Assembly (NCBI RefSeq): GCF_003473485.1
Contig: NC_053048.1
Coordinates: forward strand, 35,584,755 to 35,648,754
DNA: 64,000 nt
DNA from: Medicago truncatula
Lineage: Eukaryota; Streptophyta; Magnoliopsida; Fabales; Fabaceae
Reading direction: 5' to 3'
Under the pieces are notes generated by a model. That model saw only the letters and a program-made list of their open reading frames with translations, was not told where the DNA came from and did not search any database. Within the stretch, counting starts at the first letter, position 1. Each line of letters begins with the position of its first letter. Both the position numbers and the translations under genes were made by a program. Positions 1,841 to 54,589 of the stretch are shown one piece after another.

Positions 1841-4385
1841 ATGGCAGAAGCAAAACTAAGGTTAGTATTACTACTAGTACCACTACTACCAGGGGCGGAT
1901 CCAGTGCATGACGAGTGTGTGCACGTGCATACCCTAAACTTTGAAAAATTGCACTAATATTCTTATAGTTTTGCATTATGACCACCATGAATTTTTTTGC
2001 TTTGCACCTTTGACCCAAAGAGTTTGCATCTAAACCCCAAATATCCTTCCATTGCTTTAATTTATTATTTCTGTCACACCGACTTTTCTTCCCTTCTTTA
2101 CTTTTCAGCACCGATCAAATCATACAGTTTTCTGACCATATGAAGGTACCAAGGGATCCAACCCATGAATGCTCCCAACCTGTTTAAAAAGATATGCTGC
2201 TTGGCTATATCAAGAATCATATAGCCAAAAATATTATATTTACTCACAAATATAATATATAGTACTGTGCTACACCACTTTGAACTACTTCATTTTTCTG
2301 TGGCTCATGCATATCAATCAGCACACATGCAAAGATTCAATTTCCATAAGTATGTTTCCATATATTACTTTGTATTATATGGACCTGTTTAATTAAGATT
2401 TGTGCTTTTCAGGTATGCAGTTGTTACTGGGTCAAACAAAGGGATAGGATTTGAGACTGTTAAAATGTTGGCCTCAAATGGTGTCAAGGTGGTGCTTACA
2501 GCTAGAGATGAGAAAAAAGGGAATGAAGCCATTCAGAAATTGAAACAGTTTGGTCTCTCTGACCAAGTTATGTTTCACCAACTTGATGTCACTGACTCTG
2601 CTAGTATTACTTCACTTGTGATCATAATATAAGAAATTGTTGAGGTGGAGAAGTGTCACATGTGATCTATAGTCAACTGATGCTTAAAAATTGTTCAAAA
2701 TTTCAATTGATCTATTAAAGTAGAAGTTTTTAGTTCTCCACATCCTTAGAGTTAGTGACTTGATCAATGTAGATTCAACAAATATAAAAGAAAACGAATA
2801 TAAGCTAGAAAGATTTTGAAGCACTAATATTCATTTTCTTAGTTTTTTTGCATAACTATGACGCCCGATTGGGTCACCTCAGTTGTGAGGAGGACAACTG
2901 ATTTAGTGAGTTTCTACTTATGGTGAGTAGCACAGATGATTGTTAAAATTTCAAACGATTTTCAAGTATCAGTTCATGATAGATCATGACACACTTCCCT
3001 AAGCTGTCTATAATAGATGGCAAAATAATAATAAGTTTTATGATATCACAAAAAGAAAAGAACATGACAAGCCAACTTGTTTGTGATCCTTAGTTTTATA
3101 CGAGTGAATCTTTTGAAATCTTAAGTATTTTAAATTTTGTTGTAGGTGAACAATGCAGGAGTTAGTGGTGTCAATCCATATGAAACGGTTAGTGTTCTTA
3201 TTTTATTTACTACTCTCTCCGTCCCTATATGTAAGCACCATTTTCCTCTAATAAAAGGGTGCTTACATATAAGGACGGAGGGAGTAGTAAGTATTACCAT
3301 TGGTGTATGTGAAGCCTCTATATCAAAGCTTTGAATTTATTCAACATGAATGTAGGTGGGATCAACAGTTGATTGGGAGAAACTGACACAAACTAGTGAC
3401 ATGGCTGAAAATTGCCTCAGAACAAACTACTATGGTGTTAAGGAAACAACTGATGCCTTTCTTCCCCTTCTCAAGTTATCCAATTCTTCCAAGATTGTTA
3501 ATGTTTCCTCCCAAGCAGCATTATTGAAGGTACAATCAAGAGTACCAGATCTTTTGAATGATTCACCAATTTGGTTTATGAAATTGCTAGCTTTGTCAAA
3601 TTAGTTTATTAAATTAACACAATGTCAACATGATTTTATTTGTGCATGTTTGGATTGTTGGCGAGTTTGTTAATTGCAACGGTAAGTTTGTTAAAATTCT
3701 AAATGTAACTTTTGTCAAAATTGTAATGGCTCGTCATGATTCTGCCAATCCAAACATGCACTTGCCTCTAGTAGAAAATTTCAAGAACTAAATTCCAAAA
3801 CGATCAATATGATCAAAGACTTCAATGTTCAAGGACTATTTTGAAATATTAACAATTTTATAGGTTAAATTGACAATGTCGTACAACTTCGTGGGACTAA
3901 ATCGATGATTCAGTCCTAAACTTTTTGTTTTTAACTTTAGTCCATTTTATAATAATATGTTTTTACTCTACCTTCTCAACATATGCAAAATTTTGGTGAT
4001 GTTTCAGAATATACCAAATCAATGGGCTAAAAGGGTGTTTGATGATATTGAAAATCTTACAGAAGAGAAAATAGATGAGGTACTAAAAGAGTTTATCAAA
4101 GACTTCAAAGAAGGTTCACTAGAAAACAAAGGGTGGCCAACAATCATGTCTGCCTATATTATCTCAAAAGCAGCCATGAATTCTTACACAAGAATTCTAG
4201 CCAAGAAGTATCCAAACATGTGCATCAATTGTGTGTGTCCTGGTTTTGTTAAAACAGACATCAACAAAAACACTGGCATGTTACCTGTTGACCAAGGTGC
4301 TGCTAGTGTTGTGAGATTAGCTCTGCTTCCTGATGATTCCCCTTCTGGCCTCTTCTTTATTAGGGAAGAAATATCAAACTTTTGA
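1841..4385 (+). CDS. Short-chain dehydrogenase/reductase, salutaridine/neomenthol-reductase-like, possibly defective
   Basis: Predicted exons are 1841-1860, 2413-2617, 3146-3187, 3356-3529 and 4008-4385. The family reduces carbonyls with NADPH, usually in the cytosol. Visible motifs are the dinucleotide-binding TGSNKGIG, NNAG, the catalytic serine in NVSSQAA, YIISK (Tyr and Lys of YxxxK), and CPGFVKTD. All introns match those of the neighbour at 5507 in position and phase. The odd part is the end of exon 2: after '...SITSL' the 14 residues that form helix D and the start of strand 4 in the neighbour are missing. The frame would be kept only if a weak GTGATC donor at 2618 is used. Without splicing there, the reading runs into a stop. 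The product, about 272 aa, may not fold, so this could be a young pseudogene. Intron 1 is 552 bp against 98 bp in the neighbour and holds inserted sequence beginning near 1890 with 'caggggcggatccag'. Confidence 0.65.
3208..3289. mobile_element. Stowaway-like MITE in SDR intron 3
   Basis: The two ends form an inverted repeat of about 32 bp with two mismatches. The left arm begins TACTACTCTCTCCGTCC and the right arm is the complement of TACTACTCCCTCCGTCC. The loop is only about 18 bp. The CTCCCTCCGTC tip and the TA-type flanks fit Stowaway (Tc1/mariner-derived) MITEs. It lies in an intron between exons 3 and 4 of the first SDR gene. Confidence 0.8.
3642..3761. mobile_element. Small TIR element in SDR intron 4
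   Basis: A perfect terminal inverted repeat, GTGCATGTTTGGATTG at the left and CAATCCAAACATGCAC at the right (with one extra base inside), encloses about 120 bp without coding potential. 'tgtttgga' tips are common to hAT- or Harbinger-type MITEs. I could not fix a target duplication. Confidence 0.6.
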
Positions 4386-48483: not shown

Positions 48484-51400
48484 CTATCTGGTCTTGGGGG
48501 CTTTAGACAATTTTCTCTCTATTTTCCTCAGTTTTTTCTTTTTCCTTTTTTCTTTATTCTCTTCTTTCACCTTCTTTTTATTTTCTTTCCTAGCTTTTTT
48601 TCTAGCATCTTTCTTCTCTTGAGTATCTGAACCACTTTCAGAATATAAAATCTCTTCAGAATCACTTATGTCACCATTGTCCTCACTGGGTTGAGACTCG
48701 GCATCATCTAATAGATTGTTTGGCCCTGCAGCTGCGGCAACTAAAAGTCCAGGAATTGTCTGATAATACAAATCTAAAATGTCTTTGCCGTTCATTGTCT
48801 TAACATCGACAAGTTTATTTGCAATGTATTCCTGGTAACAAGAGTTCAAGAAAATAAACATGTCATAATGGAGAGAAAAAATCAATGAGCTAAATAGAAA
48901 ATAGACCAACATGACTATAGTGCTTTTAGTTCATCAAAATACATTTAATTTTTATATCAAAACCAGACTCATAATGTTTTAGAAAGAAAACACGATATTG
49001 GCAGGTTAAATAAAGTATGAATTTTACATTTTTTTTTTTGGTACAAAAGTATGAATTTTACATTTTTATCATATATGTAAATTAATAACAAACTACTGCA
49101 CTAATATCATATCTAATTGGGAATACTTATATTTAGAATCAGTTGTAAATAGAAGTGTTAGAATAGTTGTTATGCTTATATACTTGATGACTCAATGTTA
49201 TTAAAATCACAATCTTAATTGTGGGATTGCACAATTTCACAAGTCGAGATCCCCCCATTCTGTGCTGCGTAGCTGCATTTCACTTTCACATGGGTCTTTC
49301 TTGTGTGATCATCAGATTCAAGAAGGCGGAAAGTCATGCACATTGGCTTGTTTTATTATCCGGATCAGTTTTCCATAAAACTGTCCCCTCCCGATCCTAG
49401 GTTGAATCTCAATTTTCACAACATCGCTTATACTCTTATTTTTAGTTATAAAAAAACTTAGTGCCTAATAGTTGCGTTTCCAGCATTGTAGTGGTGTTTT
49501 CTGTATGGCAAGAGTTCTAGTATCCGAAGGGGCTTATCTCCATAGCTTGTTACACCTTTTTGCTTAAATACAAATATCTAAGACTATACTCGCTAAATTT
49601 CTGACTTCAGTTTTTTCTTCATTTGCTTGCGTTCTGATTCATATTCTTACATTCATACAAAAAGTAACTTTATATGGCCAGTTACCTTCGCAAATAGACG
49701 GTCTGCATTCTCATCCTCTATCGATACATCTCCTCTGGCCAAAAGTTTTTGTTGCACCTGGGAAATGTTGAAAATGATAAGCATATGTTTAAAGTTGTTC
49801 AGAGAATGTAATCAATGACAAATTAACGACAAATACCTCTTCCAAATAACTATCCACAGCATCGTCGGCAATCAATGCATCAAAAATAAAAACAAACAGT
49901 TCTACTATTGTCATGACACCTACACCATGCTTTTTAAAGAAATCCTGCAAGTAAAACAAGTACTTAAAATCACTTTTTTTTTCTTATTAGCCCCCCACAC
50001 ATGAGGAAGATGACAAGAGATATGTGATTTACAGATAGTGCCTCGGGAGGAACTTACGGATACGTGAATACAGTCTTCAATCAGAAACTCAAAAGCAAGA
50101 GGATGGTCAAGGTCAACCCCTTGAGAAACATCAATAATATATAAGTGACCCTGATAAATGAAGAATAAATAAGTAAACTATGTATAGAGAGACATTTCGT
50201 CACTAAAATATAAACACCCAAAGAAGTATTCACCTCATTATAAAGTATATTATATTCACTGAGGTCGCCATGCACCAATCTGCACTTCTGATATAATGTC
50301 CGCATTGCAACAATCATCTGAAACACAAAAGCTCATAGTGTCAGCCTCAAAAATTGGCATAACAGATTAAACTTTAGCACCTTTATAATTTAGAAAGGTA
50401 TGGGAAATGTGTGAGAAGTGTTTCCATGGATAATCCTTAAATGATGCCCCATAAGATAGTGTAGACTTCTAAACTACTTTAATCACACAGGTGAGCTTTT
50501 AGCAGTGTTGTCAATTGAGGAAGGCAGGAAAAGAAAAACAGTTTGTTCAAATTCTGCTACACTACAGTATTACATCGTGCAACTATATCCTCTATTCAAC
50601 AACACGTCGTACTAATGAGCGTATCGCAGAACAATATCAATCTTTTGAAATTCCGCTACACGGGAGCGCTATGGTGCTACTGTAGCCGCTATTGAACAAC
50701 TCTGGCTTTTAGTAACCATTCTAGATAAAAGGCTTCTGAGGACCAAAACAAGAGCCATATATTAAAGCATCCCAACAACATTCTAAACCATGCTAACTTT
50801 ACTAGACTACTGTATGACACACCTCAACATAGCCTTCCCGTAGCCTGTCTAAAGATAAATCTGCGTCTTTGAGACGTGGAGCGGCACAACCATCCTTTCC
50901 TGCATGACTCAAATAACCAGAGAACTTTAGTTAAACTCCTACTTGCATTTGTTCTGTCTAAACTGCAGTATGTATTACAAGAACGAGATGATACGCTACA
51001 CCAAGAAATTGGAATTTTGTAGGACTGATAATGCATTTGATCATTATTGAACGATGCACTACGTTACTTTCCATTTTTCTTTCTTTTTTAATCAAATGTT
51101 GACATATATACACTGGTATTCAATATAACAAACACAATTAAGAGTAGTTGACTATAATCGGACAATCAGATTGTATCAAAATCCAGGATAAAAGCAATAC
51201 CAATAAATTCCATAACAAGGATATGTTGCTTCAGAAGATATGGTTTAGGGCACCTAATTCCTTCTGCCTTTAGCCTGCACTCCAATACAGACAGGGAGAA
51301 AGAAAGAACAACTTAGGCAAAAAACTAATCAAACTCTTTCTTAATTGGAAAAATATGAAAGAAGAAACTATACATAAAGGAGGCCATTTAACACCATAAT

Positions 51401-53328
51401 AATATAATACAGTTGGAAAAAAAAAATAGTGGATAACTTGAATGATTTTCTCCTTTCTTCAATTCTTTTTTTCATATTATTTTTGTTGACAGTGTAATTT
51501 AATATATCACATTTTACATCAGTACTATCTTTAACATTTTTCAGTTAAGTGCATATCCAACAGAAGAAGAAAAAATCCAACAGAAGAGAAAAACAGGAAT
51601 GAAAAAAGAGCAAATGCAAACCTCGAAAGATTACTCCTTTCCTTTTCTGCCCATGTTTTTACCATTTTTCGGGGATTAGACCCACAGTACTCGTTTTCAA
51701 ACCGGCGATCTCCTTTCACATATCTAGCTCTATCCCTGATATCAATTAGATCATAAAAGTCAGTTTATAAATAAAATATTATAGCAGCCTGTGTAATTCT
51801 TTCTTAATATTTCAGCGTTCAAGAATCAAGATAATATGAAATAAAATAACAGAAGTTAGAACAATCTGATACTCGTAGTACTCACTTAAATGCCAGAACA
51901 GATGTTTTGTATATTTTAATTGCAAGTTCTCGACCATCGGATTTTGTAGCATGATAAACATTTGCCTGTTAGAAAACAAAAGAGAGTAAAGACATAAGTA
52001 TAATAACAAATAGACTCAATTATTCACATTAAGTTCCCATCATAAAACCTTAATAAAAAAATCACAAAAAATAAAAATAAAAAAATCTGAAACTTGTAAA
52101 TAAAAGCTTCTGGTGTACGACATACTTCTTTTCCAGTTGAAATGCATCCATTCATACATTGAATTTGAAACAAATCTTCTTCGTTCAGCATCTTGCGCGT
52201 TCTGAGATCAATTACCTATTGTAATTTTATTGTTAGGAGCATATGTATTTATTGAAAATGAATAAGATAAACAAGGAAACTTTAAGTAAAAATAAATATG
52301 TATAACAAATAGAATCAATTATCCACATCCAATCCCCATCATAAAACCTTGACTACAAAATCACAAAAACAAAACTGAAACATGTAAGTAAAAGCTTCTG
52401 GTGTATGACATACTTCTTTTCTAGTTAAAATGCATCCATTGGAATCTTGAAACCAACGTTTGTTCATCATCTTGTATATTTCCATGCGCGTTCTGGGATC
52501 AATTGCCTAGGGGATTTTTAGCGTTAGTTGCACAAGAATTATTGAGAATGAATTAAGGCAAACAAGGAAACCTTAAGTAAAAAATAGAAAATTTCTATTG
52601 ACAAGTGCAGCTTTTGAAAGTACTAATATATACTAGATGTTGTGATTTCCAATAAATAATCTCTATTCATTGATTTCTTAACCAATGCCCTAGTGCGAGA
52701 CAAAAGAAAAATTCAGGTACTAAATGCTATGAAATAATTATTGTTTACATTCTCAACAGTGGCTCGGTCGGCTTTGTCATTAGTTTTAGTTTTACCAATG
52801 GCCATCTCTTTCACACATCCACGAATTTCTGTTGTAACACTGTTAGACATGGCAATATTCATTCTTCCTTCCAAATCCTGCAACAACAATAACATCTAAC
52901 TTAGCTTAAAACTAGAACCGAAAAACACATTGCACAGAACACAAAATCAAACAAATCATCTCACAACAGAAAAACCAAACCAATATATTTAAATGATTCA
53001 TAGTAACATTTGCGAATCAATAAAATATATGTCACAGTTGAAGACCACATACACACGAAAACAACTGCAACATGTGAAACTCACACATACATGTGATGTC
53101 TACAGATGAAAGCATACAAATATGCATGGTAATGTCGTTAGAGAGAGAGAGGGTTATGAAGAATGGAACCTCTAATGGGGAAGCATCATCAAATTCGGAA
53201 CCTGAGGAAAACGAGTCATGATCATCGCTTTTGAATTCATCATCTTCATAACTGTTTTGTTGTTCCACCTCAATGGCCATTGATTCTAGTTCATCATCAT
53301 CGATTTTCTGTTCGACCTCCATGACCAT
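48484..53328 (-). CDS. RIO1: RIO1-type atypical protein kinase
   Basis: Thirteen predicted exons: 53328-53170, 52877-52749, 52506-52414, 52215-52126, 51965-51886, 51735-51622, 51274-51201, 50899-50823, 50317-50234, 50150-50058, 49944-49837, 49757-49686, 48831-48484; 506 aa if all are used. RIO1 kinases act in late 40S ribosome maturation in the cytoplasm. Visible: acidic N-terminus, RATVEN, ATP loop, LAIKIYKTS (ATP-binding Lys), PRKMVKTWAEKE, ILVMEFIG, catalytic HGDLSEYN, metal-binding IIDVS, and a Lys-rich C-terminal tail. Exons 3 and 4 are two versions of the same ATP-loop exon; only the second has STGKE, the first has LTRKE. Both have phase-0 ends, so either or both could be used. A W to C change in KDGCAAPRLKD and other drift suggest a diverging paralogue. 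Start is the first ATG at 53328; the earlier in-frame codon is TTG. Confidence 0.92.
50500..50710. mobile_element. MITE of the 'tagcgctat' family in RIO1 intron 8
   Basis: Contains 'gttgtcaattgaggaaggc', 'cagtttgttcaaattctgc', 'gaaattccgctacacggg' and 'gtagccgctattgaacaac', related in minus and plus phrases to 9755-9965 and 17735-17890. Confidence 0.45.
52000..52510 (-). repeat. Tandem duplication of a RIO1 exon with flanking intron (291-bp step)
   Basis: Exon copies 52126-52215 and 52414-52506 share the start 'attgatc-cagaacgcgca', the end 'aatggatgcattt-aact-g-aaaagaa|gtatg', and the intron that follows ('tcrtacaccagaagctttt', then 'aaggttttatgatgggga' like parts). Exon starts are 291 bp apart. 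The 52126-52215 copy has lost about 12 nt and gained others in its middle. Confidence 0.85.
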
Positions 53329-53582
53329 TGTTATGGCCGCTTTGAATGCCGAAAGAAACAAACCAAGGCAGAAAAGAGTGATGATGCAAAAACCCTAATT
53401 TGCTTTAGTTTTAGTGTGCACAAGTTTAGTAATAATTCATTCGTCAAACAAAATCAAAAAGTTAGTAATTAGTAATAATTCAGAAACGTGGGCGTCAAGC
53501 TAGACTACTAATAACCAAAACCCTGGAATTTTTTACCTTTCTTTAAAAAACTCAACATTACCCCCTCCTCTTTCAATTATGG

Positions 53583-53748
53583 GCATGTTTGGACTGACTT
53601 AATTTTGAACTTATACAAATAAATAAGTTTTTAGTTTATCAAGGTAAGATACAATTTTCGTCGATGACAACTTATGAATTCACATAAAAACTTGTTTATT
53701 TGCTTAATCTTCTTTTTTATAAGCTCAAAAATAAGTAAATCCAAACGA
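53583..53748. mobile_element. Small TIR element upstream of RIO1
   Basis: Ends 'gggcatgtttggactgact' and 'aagtaaatccaaacgag' with internal 'taagtttttag'/'aaacttgtttatt' inverted parts. Non-coding. A related, less clear segment is at 18478-18712. Confidence 0.45.
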
Positions 53749-54589
53749 GTTTTATATACACAATTATCCCTTGTCAATACTCTCTCCAATCCTTATTATT
53801 AAAAACAATTGACTTTTTAGATTTATTGAATAATTAATGTATTTGGTTTTATAACTCTAACTCTAATTGTTGCGCCGATAATCTAGGTAATCTTGGTCAT
53901 AATGGACTCATTAATTTTTGTATAAATTGTCTAATCCTCCCTTCTTTTTCCAACTTCTAATGGCTAATGATTGTAGAGAGAACTTTTTATCTTGTTTGTT
54001 TCTTAGCCTTCATATTGTTATTTTTCCCTTTATTAAAAAAAAGGATAAGTTTACCATTGATTTAATGGTTGGATTATATTTGATTCATAATTTGAATTAG
54101 GATTACTATAGATTTGATTTGTTAAAATTGATCTAAAAATTAAATTATATTTTATTTAAAATTCAAATTAGAACCGGTTTAGCTTTAATTTGTTAAATTT
54201 AATTATTAAATGAAGAAATTTGATCTTATAGATCTTGACACCACATATTCACTCAGAATTTTAATATTTAGATGGAGATGTGGTGTCCCAATCTTAAGTT
54301 GGTTTTGAATCATTAGTCTATTACTTTAAGTGTTCCTTAATTGAAGCAAAAACAAATGATGCGTAAAGAACTTTTTGATGGGAAGCCGCCATATAGCACC
54401 CGCTCTAGGGACCTTCTCCAACTCGTCAATGAATTCTCTCTACTGGTATATTAGAGTGTATGACTTTTAAAAAAAAAAAAATGGGAATCAGCGATTTTCA
54501 CTTCAAAGTCAAGGCACTTAATTTTCATGTTTAGGAAATAGAAAGGTAAGAAGAAATAATGGAGTTGGAAACAAGCAATCCTGACTGAA
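53749..54589. other. Upstream region of RIO1 and spacer
   Basis: AT-rich; includes a 'tttttagatttattgaataattaatgta' type repeat phrase near 53810. No gene recognised. Confidence 0.3.

What the first reader, a model, noticed from the sequence alone, without database searches (positions are those of the whole stretch)
52000..52510. Tandemly duplicated ATP-loop exon in a RIO1 kinase gene
Two neighbouring exons (52414-52506 and 52126-52215) encode alternative versions of the same 30-31 residue segment just before the ATP-binding Lys exon. Both have phase-0 ends and good splice sites, so one, the other or both can be included in frame. The first keeps the family-like upstream part (AIDPRTR...) but has LTRKE in place of STGKE; the second keeps STGKE but is rebuilt in its middle. 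The pair could make kinase-active and kinase-dead isoforms, or reflect decay of a paralogue. Intron sequence is duplicated too.
Basis: partly seen in the sequence, partly recalled or inferred. Interest (0 to 1): 0.75.

Follow-up and report, generated by a model that had tools for sequence, protein, structure and literature searches.

The report
Duplicated ATP-loop exon in RIO1 paralogue
A fast-evolving copy of a ribosome-maturation kinase gene in the legume Medicago truncatula carries two neighbouring, differently worn versions of the exon that builds its ATP-binding loop, and a sister gene shows a second, separate duplication at the same spot; whether the pair is used together or alternatively is not known.

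Summary
The duplication is real. In a 13-exon RIO1-type gene (53328-48484, minus strand; Medicago truncatula C7) a unit of about 290 bp holding exon 3 and intron flanks is repeated head to tail. Exons 3A and 3B are in phase 0; all four combinations keep the frame, and the 506-codon frame has no internal stop. 3A has lost P-loop residues (STGKE to LTRKE); 3B keeps STGKE but has a reworked helix half. Intron divergence puts the duplication after the split from paralogue L010; against L009 the order is not significant. The gene evolves fast (branch dN/dS 0.72, interval includes 1) yet keeps its frame. Nothing found would make the exons mutually exclusive. Complementary wear fits inclusion of both, 3A giving the helix and 3B the P-loop; against this, the two protein records found carry 3A only, and no transcript-derived protein of the gene appeared in the rows shown. 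The conserved sister gene at 42.60 Mb has its own tandem duplication there, making a hybrid 16-residue exon; a 588-residue protein on a contig of at most 2.2 kb shows it spliced in. So: a new member of a known kind (tandem exon duplication); the active/dead isoform switch is not supported, and isoform use is undecided.

The parts
53170..53328 (-). exon 1 (start codon at 53328; N-terminal acidic part, lacks the RPNAHGG block of other family members)
52749..52877 (-). exon 2 (...DKADRATVEN)
52302..52583 (-). duplicated unit, copy A (intron 2 end, exon 3A, start of following intron)
52414..52506 (-). exon 3A, 31 codons, LTRKE in place of STGKE; the only version in the two protein records found
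52003..52292 (-). duplicated unit, copy B
52126..52215 (-). exon 3B, 30 codons, STGKE kept, helix half reworked; net 3 nt shorter than 3A (-12, +3, +6 by hand alignment, a single 3-nt gap by MAFFT)
51886..51965 (-). exon 4 with the ATP-binding Lys (ANVYHATKSDGRELAIKIYK)
51201..51735 (-). exons 5-6 (51735-51622, 51274-51201)
50058..50899 (-). exons 7-9 (50899-50823, 50317-50234 with HGDLSEYN, 50150-50058 with IIDVS)
48484..49944 (-). exons 10-12 (49944-49837, 49757-49686, 48831-48484 with stop codon)

Best explanation
An intragenic tandem duplication of about 290 bp doubled exon 3 of a RIO1 paralogue in the lineage of M. truncatula, after this gene had separated from paralogue L010 and probably also from L009. 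Shown: the duplication, GT-AG sites, phase-0 ends and a complete frame. Inferred: both exons were spliced into the mRNA together, because plant introns are mostly recognised one by one and nothing here forces a choice. In a doubly included 506-residue protein, exon 3A supplies the N-terminal helix and exon 3B the P-loop that runs into exon 4, so each copy could lose the half that the other provides: 3A lost the Ser and Gly of STGKE, 3B lost (by hand alignment) four helix residues. The leftover halves become an insertion of about 30 residues between helix and P-loop. The gene is a fast-evolving, probably dispensable paralogue whose present expression and isoform use are unknown.
For: Repeat and gene model. 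A-B intron divergence 30/187, against A-L010 41/135 (p 0.003), B-L010 39/135 (p 0.006), A-L020 43/168 (p 0.035), B-L020 41/168 (p 0.06), A-L009 34/171 (p 0.41), B-L009 38/171 (p 0.14). Complementary wear: Ser and Gly of STGKE are kept in 155 of 157 proteins of the usual segment length, the other two being this gene's records; of 174 family-invariant columns, in this stretch the 3A form changes S172 and G174 (and L155 to I), the 3B form lacks M153 and L155. 3B's net length change and hand-aligned indels are multiples of three, while 28 of 136 intronic gaps are. Donors rank 4 (A) and 7 (B) of 34. Precedent: the sister gene's hybrid exon is spliced in. Intron definition in plants: PMC2674458, passages seen.
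Against: The two records of the gene (P0001, a cluster of 3 member sequences, and P0002) carry 3A and skip 3B. None of 287 fetched proteins has the 3B peptide, and a fragment query with both exons showed no piece of this gene in the 120 rows listed of 975. The 3B acceptor is weak, rank 31 of 34, though the sister gene's exon 3 acceptor ranks 29. The frame argument depends on the alignment: MAFFT sees one 3-nt gap in 3B, chance 0.21; two or three events give 0.042 or 0.0087. The complementarity rests on few residues. A 90-nt exon stays free of stops after 15 random substitutions in 58% of trials. Branch dN/dS 0.72 (0.47-1.23) does not exclude neutrality. Structure models were too poor to test the insertion.
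Confidence: 0.4

Rival explanations
1. Exon 3A alone is used, as in the public records. Exon 3B is skipped or rarely used and is drifting. The product carries LTRKE in place of the phosphate-binding STGKE and is probably a weak or dead kinase.
For: P0001 (identical to my A-only translation) and P0002 both have 3A only; 3B acceptor rank 31 of 34; copy B has the longer branch, 0.219 against 0.106, though its reworked middle inflates this.
Against: 3B has kept an open frame, splice signals and an unchanged NGCISTGKE, and its indels as hand-aligned keep the frame although most intronic gaps in the gene do not. Whether RNA supports the public models was not visible.
Confidence: 0.28
2. The whole gene is a fast-decaying, little expressed paralogue; the duplicated exon has no present function.
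For: 28 of 174 family-invariant columns depart in the 3A form, 16 by gaps and 12 by substitutions; long branch; branch dN/dS 0.72, interval including 1; no transcript-derived protein of the gene in the rows shown (120 of 6536, 120 of 975).
Against: No internal stop in 506 codons; random substitution leaves no stop in 2.3% of 2000 trials at 100 and 0.35% at 150 substitutions, against roughly 135 on this branch (my arithmetic). HGDLSEYN, IIDVS and the Lys are intact.
Confidence: 0.2
3. Exons 3A and 3B are alternatives (one or the other), giving kinase-dead and kinase-active isoforms.
For: Equal phase, near-equal length, good donors, difference located in the P-loop.
Against: No enforcing feature seen: 198-nt intron between them, no frame penalty for double inclusion, and no inverted pair of 20 nt or more between the introns; a 3B-only protein lacks conserved helix residues; no 3B peptide among 287 proteins.
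Confidence: 0.12

Closest known systems
Tandem exon duplication (Kondrashov and Koonin 2001, seen only as a reference in PMC2674458)
   Same: Neighbouring, homologous, phase-matched exons made by intragenic tandem duplication.
   Different: Best-known cases (recalled) became mutually exclusive alternatives; here nothing seen enforces exclusivity and the copies are worn in complementary halves.
RIO1 (RIOK1) atypical kinase family
   Same: RIO domain by Pfam, HGDLSEYN, IIDVS, ATP-binding Lys; best solved matches are RIO1 chains 6g5i and 4otp (human by recall).
   Different: P-loop changed to LTRKE if only 3A is used; N-terminal RPNAHGG block missing; exon 3 doubled.
M. truncatula RIO1 gene at C7:42.60 Mb (L009)
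   Same: Also carries a tandem duplication touching the P-loop exons.
   Different: Its duplication runs from inside exon 3 to inside exon 4, three of its four repeat blocks are 90-93% identical (the fourth 72%) so it is probably younger, and it makes one hybrid 48-nt exon that is spliced in.

Membership tests
RIO1 kinase family | RIO domain match above Pfam cut-off | tested here: met
   PF01163, 232.7 bits against a cut-off of 22, for both A-only and B-only forms
RIO1 kinase family | STGKEA phosphate-binding loop | tested here: inconclusive
   Met if 3B joins exon 4 (B-only or both); not met in the recorded A-only form, which reads LTRKEA. The motif as RIO1 signature: PMC2564912 and PMC4125297, passages seen
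RIO1 kinase family | LVHxDLSEYN active site and IIDVS metal loop | tested here: met
   LVHGDLSEYN and IIDVSQ present
Tandem exon duplication | adjacent homologous exons with homologous intron flanks | tested here: met
Mutually exclusive exons | one and only one copy in each mRNA | not testable with these tools
   needs RNA-seq; no enforcing feature found in sequence
Pseudogene | frame-breaking lesions or lost splice sites | tested here: not met
   13 exons, GT-AG throughout, one terminal stop; expression not tested

The most novel reading that the evidence does not exclude
Exon-level division of labour inside one gene: after duplication both exons are always included, one keeping only the helix half and the other only the P-loop half, so that a single ATP-binding lobe is now built from two complementary half-worn exons. 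With the sister gene's hybrid exon, a stretch of RIO1 that has one length in nearly every plant protein measured would have been lengthened twice independently in one species.
Probability: 0.33. Interest if true: 0.62.

Novelty: new member of a known kind. Interest (0 to 1): 0.4.

Why it matters
RIO1 is needed for small-subunit maturation in yeast and humans (general knowledge) and its ATP loop hardly varies: the stretch from the helix to the ATP-binding Lys has one length in 157 of 158 proteins measured, the exception being the sister gene's P0014 (named ones are plants, a few unnamed). One species has duplicated DNA at this spot in two genes. If both exons are included together, this is a clean case for asking how duplicated exons share work instead of becoming alternatives, and why one conserved catalytic loop tolerates inserts.

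Tried and rejected
AlphaFold2 models of P0014 and P0001 gave mean pLDDT 49.1 and 51.9, and the N-lobe of P0014 had low confidence and no strands; not used, and no fold search was run. A tree of the exon-3 units left A, B and the paralogues unresolved (support 27-36); exon 3B's reworked middle confounds it, so the relative date rests on intron divergence, which is significant against L010, borderline against L020 and not significant against L009. An idea that 3B came from the L010/L020 lineage (shared CTC codon) was dropped: quartet sites 1, 1 and 3 and the intron distances. A transposon origin of the second copy was considered because exon-3 fragments sit in or near repeats on C8, but the window copies abut head to tail with no inserted ends visible. 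The A-B exon divergence by codon-aware alignment (19 of 81) is not significantly above the introns (30 of 187; p 0.17). The gap-based exon figure (33 of 90) is inflated by misalignment of the middle. Of 15 coding gaps BLAST counted 10 as multiples of three; the other five (1 and 2 in exon 3B; 5, 2 and 2 in exon 12) lie side by side and sum to 3 and 9 by my reading. For exon 3B BLAST gives 12, 1, 2, 3, 3; MAFFT one 3-nt gap; my hand alignment -12, +3, +6. The 136 intronic gaps pool comparisons with L009 and L010, so some window-side events may be counted twice. A paper search for 'Medicago truncatula' with 'RIO1 kinase' held no paper; exon-duplication searches listed 15 of 27, 12 of 13 and 12 of 12 papers, none on this gene by title or abstract start; on RIO kinases likewise. 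On re-check I lowered the double-inclusion reading from 0.42 to 0.40 (and the novel case from 0.35 to 0.33) because the indel argument is alignment-dependent and the date against L009 is not significant.

Full report
Where it is. The window lies on contig C7 of a 430-Mb genome. The A-only translation of the gene equals P0001, named serine/threonine-protein kinase rio1 of Medicago truncatula, letter for letter, so the species is taken as M. truncatula.

The gene. On the minus strand 13 exons from 53328 to 48484 join into a frame with one terminal stop: 506 residues with both exon 3 copies, 476 with 3A, 475 with 3B, 445 with neither. All boundaries are GT-AG. The RIO domain scores 232.7 bits, and the best solved matches of the B-only form are RIO1 chains 6g5i and 4otp (human by recall).

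The duplication. A unit of about 290 bp is present twice, head to tail, at 52302-52583 (A) and 52003-52292 (B). Exon 3A reads AIDPRTRMEIYKMMNKRWFQDSNGCILTRKE; exon 3B reads VIDLRTRKMLNEEDLFQIQCMNGCISTGKE. Of 158 proteins whose segment could be measured, 157 have the usual length; in these the Ser and the Gly of STGKE are each kept in 155, the other two reading Leu and Arg. Of all 287 proteins fetched, 274 hold STGKEA exactly and two hold LTRKEA, P0001 and P0002, the records of this gene. The motif is the described RIO1 phosphate-binding loop (PMC2564912 and PMC4125297, passages seen).

Age. In the flanking introns A and B differ at 30 of 187 positions. Against L010 the figures are 41/135 for A and 39/135 for B (p 0.003 and 0.006), against L020 43/168 and 41/168 (p 0.035 and 0.06), against L009 34/171 and 38/171 (p 0.41 and 0.14). 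The duplication is thus younger than the split from L010; for L009 the point estimates agree but the difference is not significant. A tree of whole units does not resolve this.

Paralogues. A search with the Cicer protein P0016 (33 matches; only the best candidates are scored) gave exons of three full genes, all on C7, at 42.60, 35.63 (this one) and 3.83 Mb, plus fragments on C6 and near 3.826 Mb. The Pfam search also hit C4:46.29 Mb, which resembles P0016 only over 24 residues at E 0.5 with VGKES and is read as a RIO2-type gene. The gene at 42.60 Mb (L009) is conserved: with its extra exon it departs from 1 of 174 family-invariant columns, without it from 3, against 28 (A form) and 27 (B form) for the window gene and 25 for L010. 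Of the window gene's 28, 16 are gaps. A protein tree places the window gene with L010 (69), near the Vicieae genes (58) and the second Cicer gene (88), on long branches; long-branch attraction is possible.

Selection. Three-way estimates on 421 columns give branch dN/dS of 0.72 (0.47-1.23) for the window gene, 0.25 (0.14-0.44) for L009 and 0.54 (0.40-0.82) for L010. Constraint on the window gene is weak and neutrality is not excluded by this measure. The open frame argues the other way: random substitution of the 506-codon frame left no stop in 2.3% of 2000 trials at 100 substitutions and 0.35% at 150; I estimate about 135 on this branch. In the introns 28 of 136 gaps are multiples of three. 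Exon 3B is 3 nt shorter than 3A; by hand alignment its changes are -12, +3 and +6, by MAFFT a single 3-nt gap. Chance is 0.21 for one such event, 0.042 for two, 0.0087 for three. This favours, without proving, that 3B was translated for part of its history. The lack of stops in 3B alone says little: 58% of trials at 15 substitutions.

Splicing. Among 34 donors and 34 acceptors of the three genes, scored with each left out in turn, the donors of A and B rank 4 (tied with two of L009) and 7, the acceptors 27 and 31. The set is small and the sites are inferred. The intron between A and B is 198 nt and double inclusion keeps the frame. The repeat search (20 nt or more, 51000-54000) found no inverted pair between the introns; one arm, 52254-52275, lies in the A-B intron, but its partner at 53691-53712 is upstream of the start codon. 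Steric exclusion, decay of double-inclusion mRNA and RNA docking (the RNA-structure route is in the abstract start of PMC6071210; the others are recalled) therefore find no support. In plants exon skipping and cryptic exons make up 10.0-20.2% of events and intron retention 40.1-51.9% in the four columns of a table in PMC2674458, which ties the latter to intron definition (passages seen). Double inclusion is the plain expectation.

Against it stand the public records. P0001 and P0002 both contain 3A only. By my reading P0002 also uses another donor in intron 1 and reads on into intron 11. None of 287 fetched proteins holds the 3B peptide; these are the listed rows of 6536, 7133 and 975 matches. 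A 169-residue query with both exons showed no fragment of this gene in the 120 rows listed. Members behind a cluster cannot be seen, and whether RNA supports the models is unknown.

The sister event. In L009 a tandem repeat of 190-200 bp spacing runs from inside exon 3 to inside exon 4; three of its four blocks are 90-93% identical, the fourth 72%. It makes a new 48-nt exon (3085-3132) that begins with the acceptor and start of exon 4 and ends with the end and donor of exon 3: ANVYHATKSIISTEKE. P0014, a 588-residue protein whose longest contig has 2196 bases, matches the form with this exon at 587 of 588 residues. The gene's coding span is 6.0 kb, so that contig must be spliced; the cluster stands for 13 member sequences, the others of which I could not see. 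None of 287 proteins holds the form without the exon (STGKEANISHA). The second copy of exon 4 reads ANISHA for ANVYHA and is 15 nt longer. Here, as proposed for the window gene, one copy keeps the P-loop and the spare one wears. It is a precedent for inclusion, not proof for the window gene.

Verdict. It is an ordinary mechanism, tandem exon duplication, in an unusual place. The active/dead switch is not supported. I favour double inclusion with complementary wear (0.40) over 3A-only use (0.28), general decay (0.20) and alternative use (0.12). One junction count in RNA-seq would decide.

Noticed in passing
L009 3085-3132 (G000 C7:42602084-42602131): Hybrid 48-nt exon in the conserved RIO1 gene, made by a tandem duplication with breakpoints inside exons 3 and 4; present in the 588-residue protein P0014 from a spliced contig of at most 2.2 kb; the other 157 proteins measured have the usual segment length.
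   Followed up: yes
window 52878-53169; L010 5169-5256; L020 upstream of about 5049: The window gene, L010 and apparently L020 have an intron at SPLE^EWEG that L009 lacks; gain or loss not decided.
   Followed up: partly
L022 4092-5118 and L021 4632-5100: Exon-3 flank or exon-3 segments at two C8 sites share flanking sequence by eye; at L022 the flanks form inverted arms (128 nt, 80%), as if a terminal-inverted-repeat element had captured part of RIO1. No such arms around the segment were reported at L021.
   Followed up: partly
L020 (G000 C6:8734500-8744000): Truncated RIO1 copy closest to L010, matching only exons 2 to 5.
   Followed up: partly
L054 (G000 C7:3825961-3826059): A lone RIO1 exon-7-like match about 7 kb from the nearer end of the L010 gene, suggesting a further partial duplication.
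   Followed up: no
L009 about 2330-2700: Intron 2 of L009 appears to contain the 3' end of a LINE-like element (read by eye).
   Followed up: no
P0003, P0004, P0021, P0027, P0028, P0087: Papaver RIO1-type proteins of 802-879 residues, longer than most others listed.
   Followed up: no
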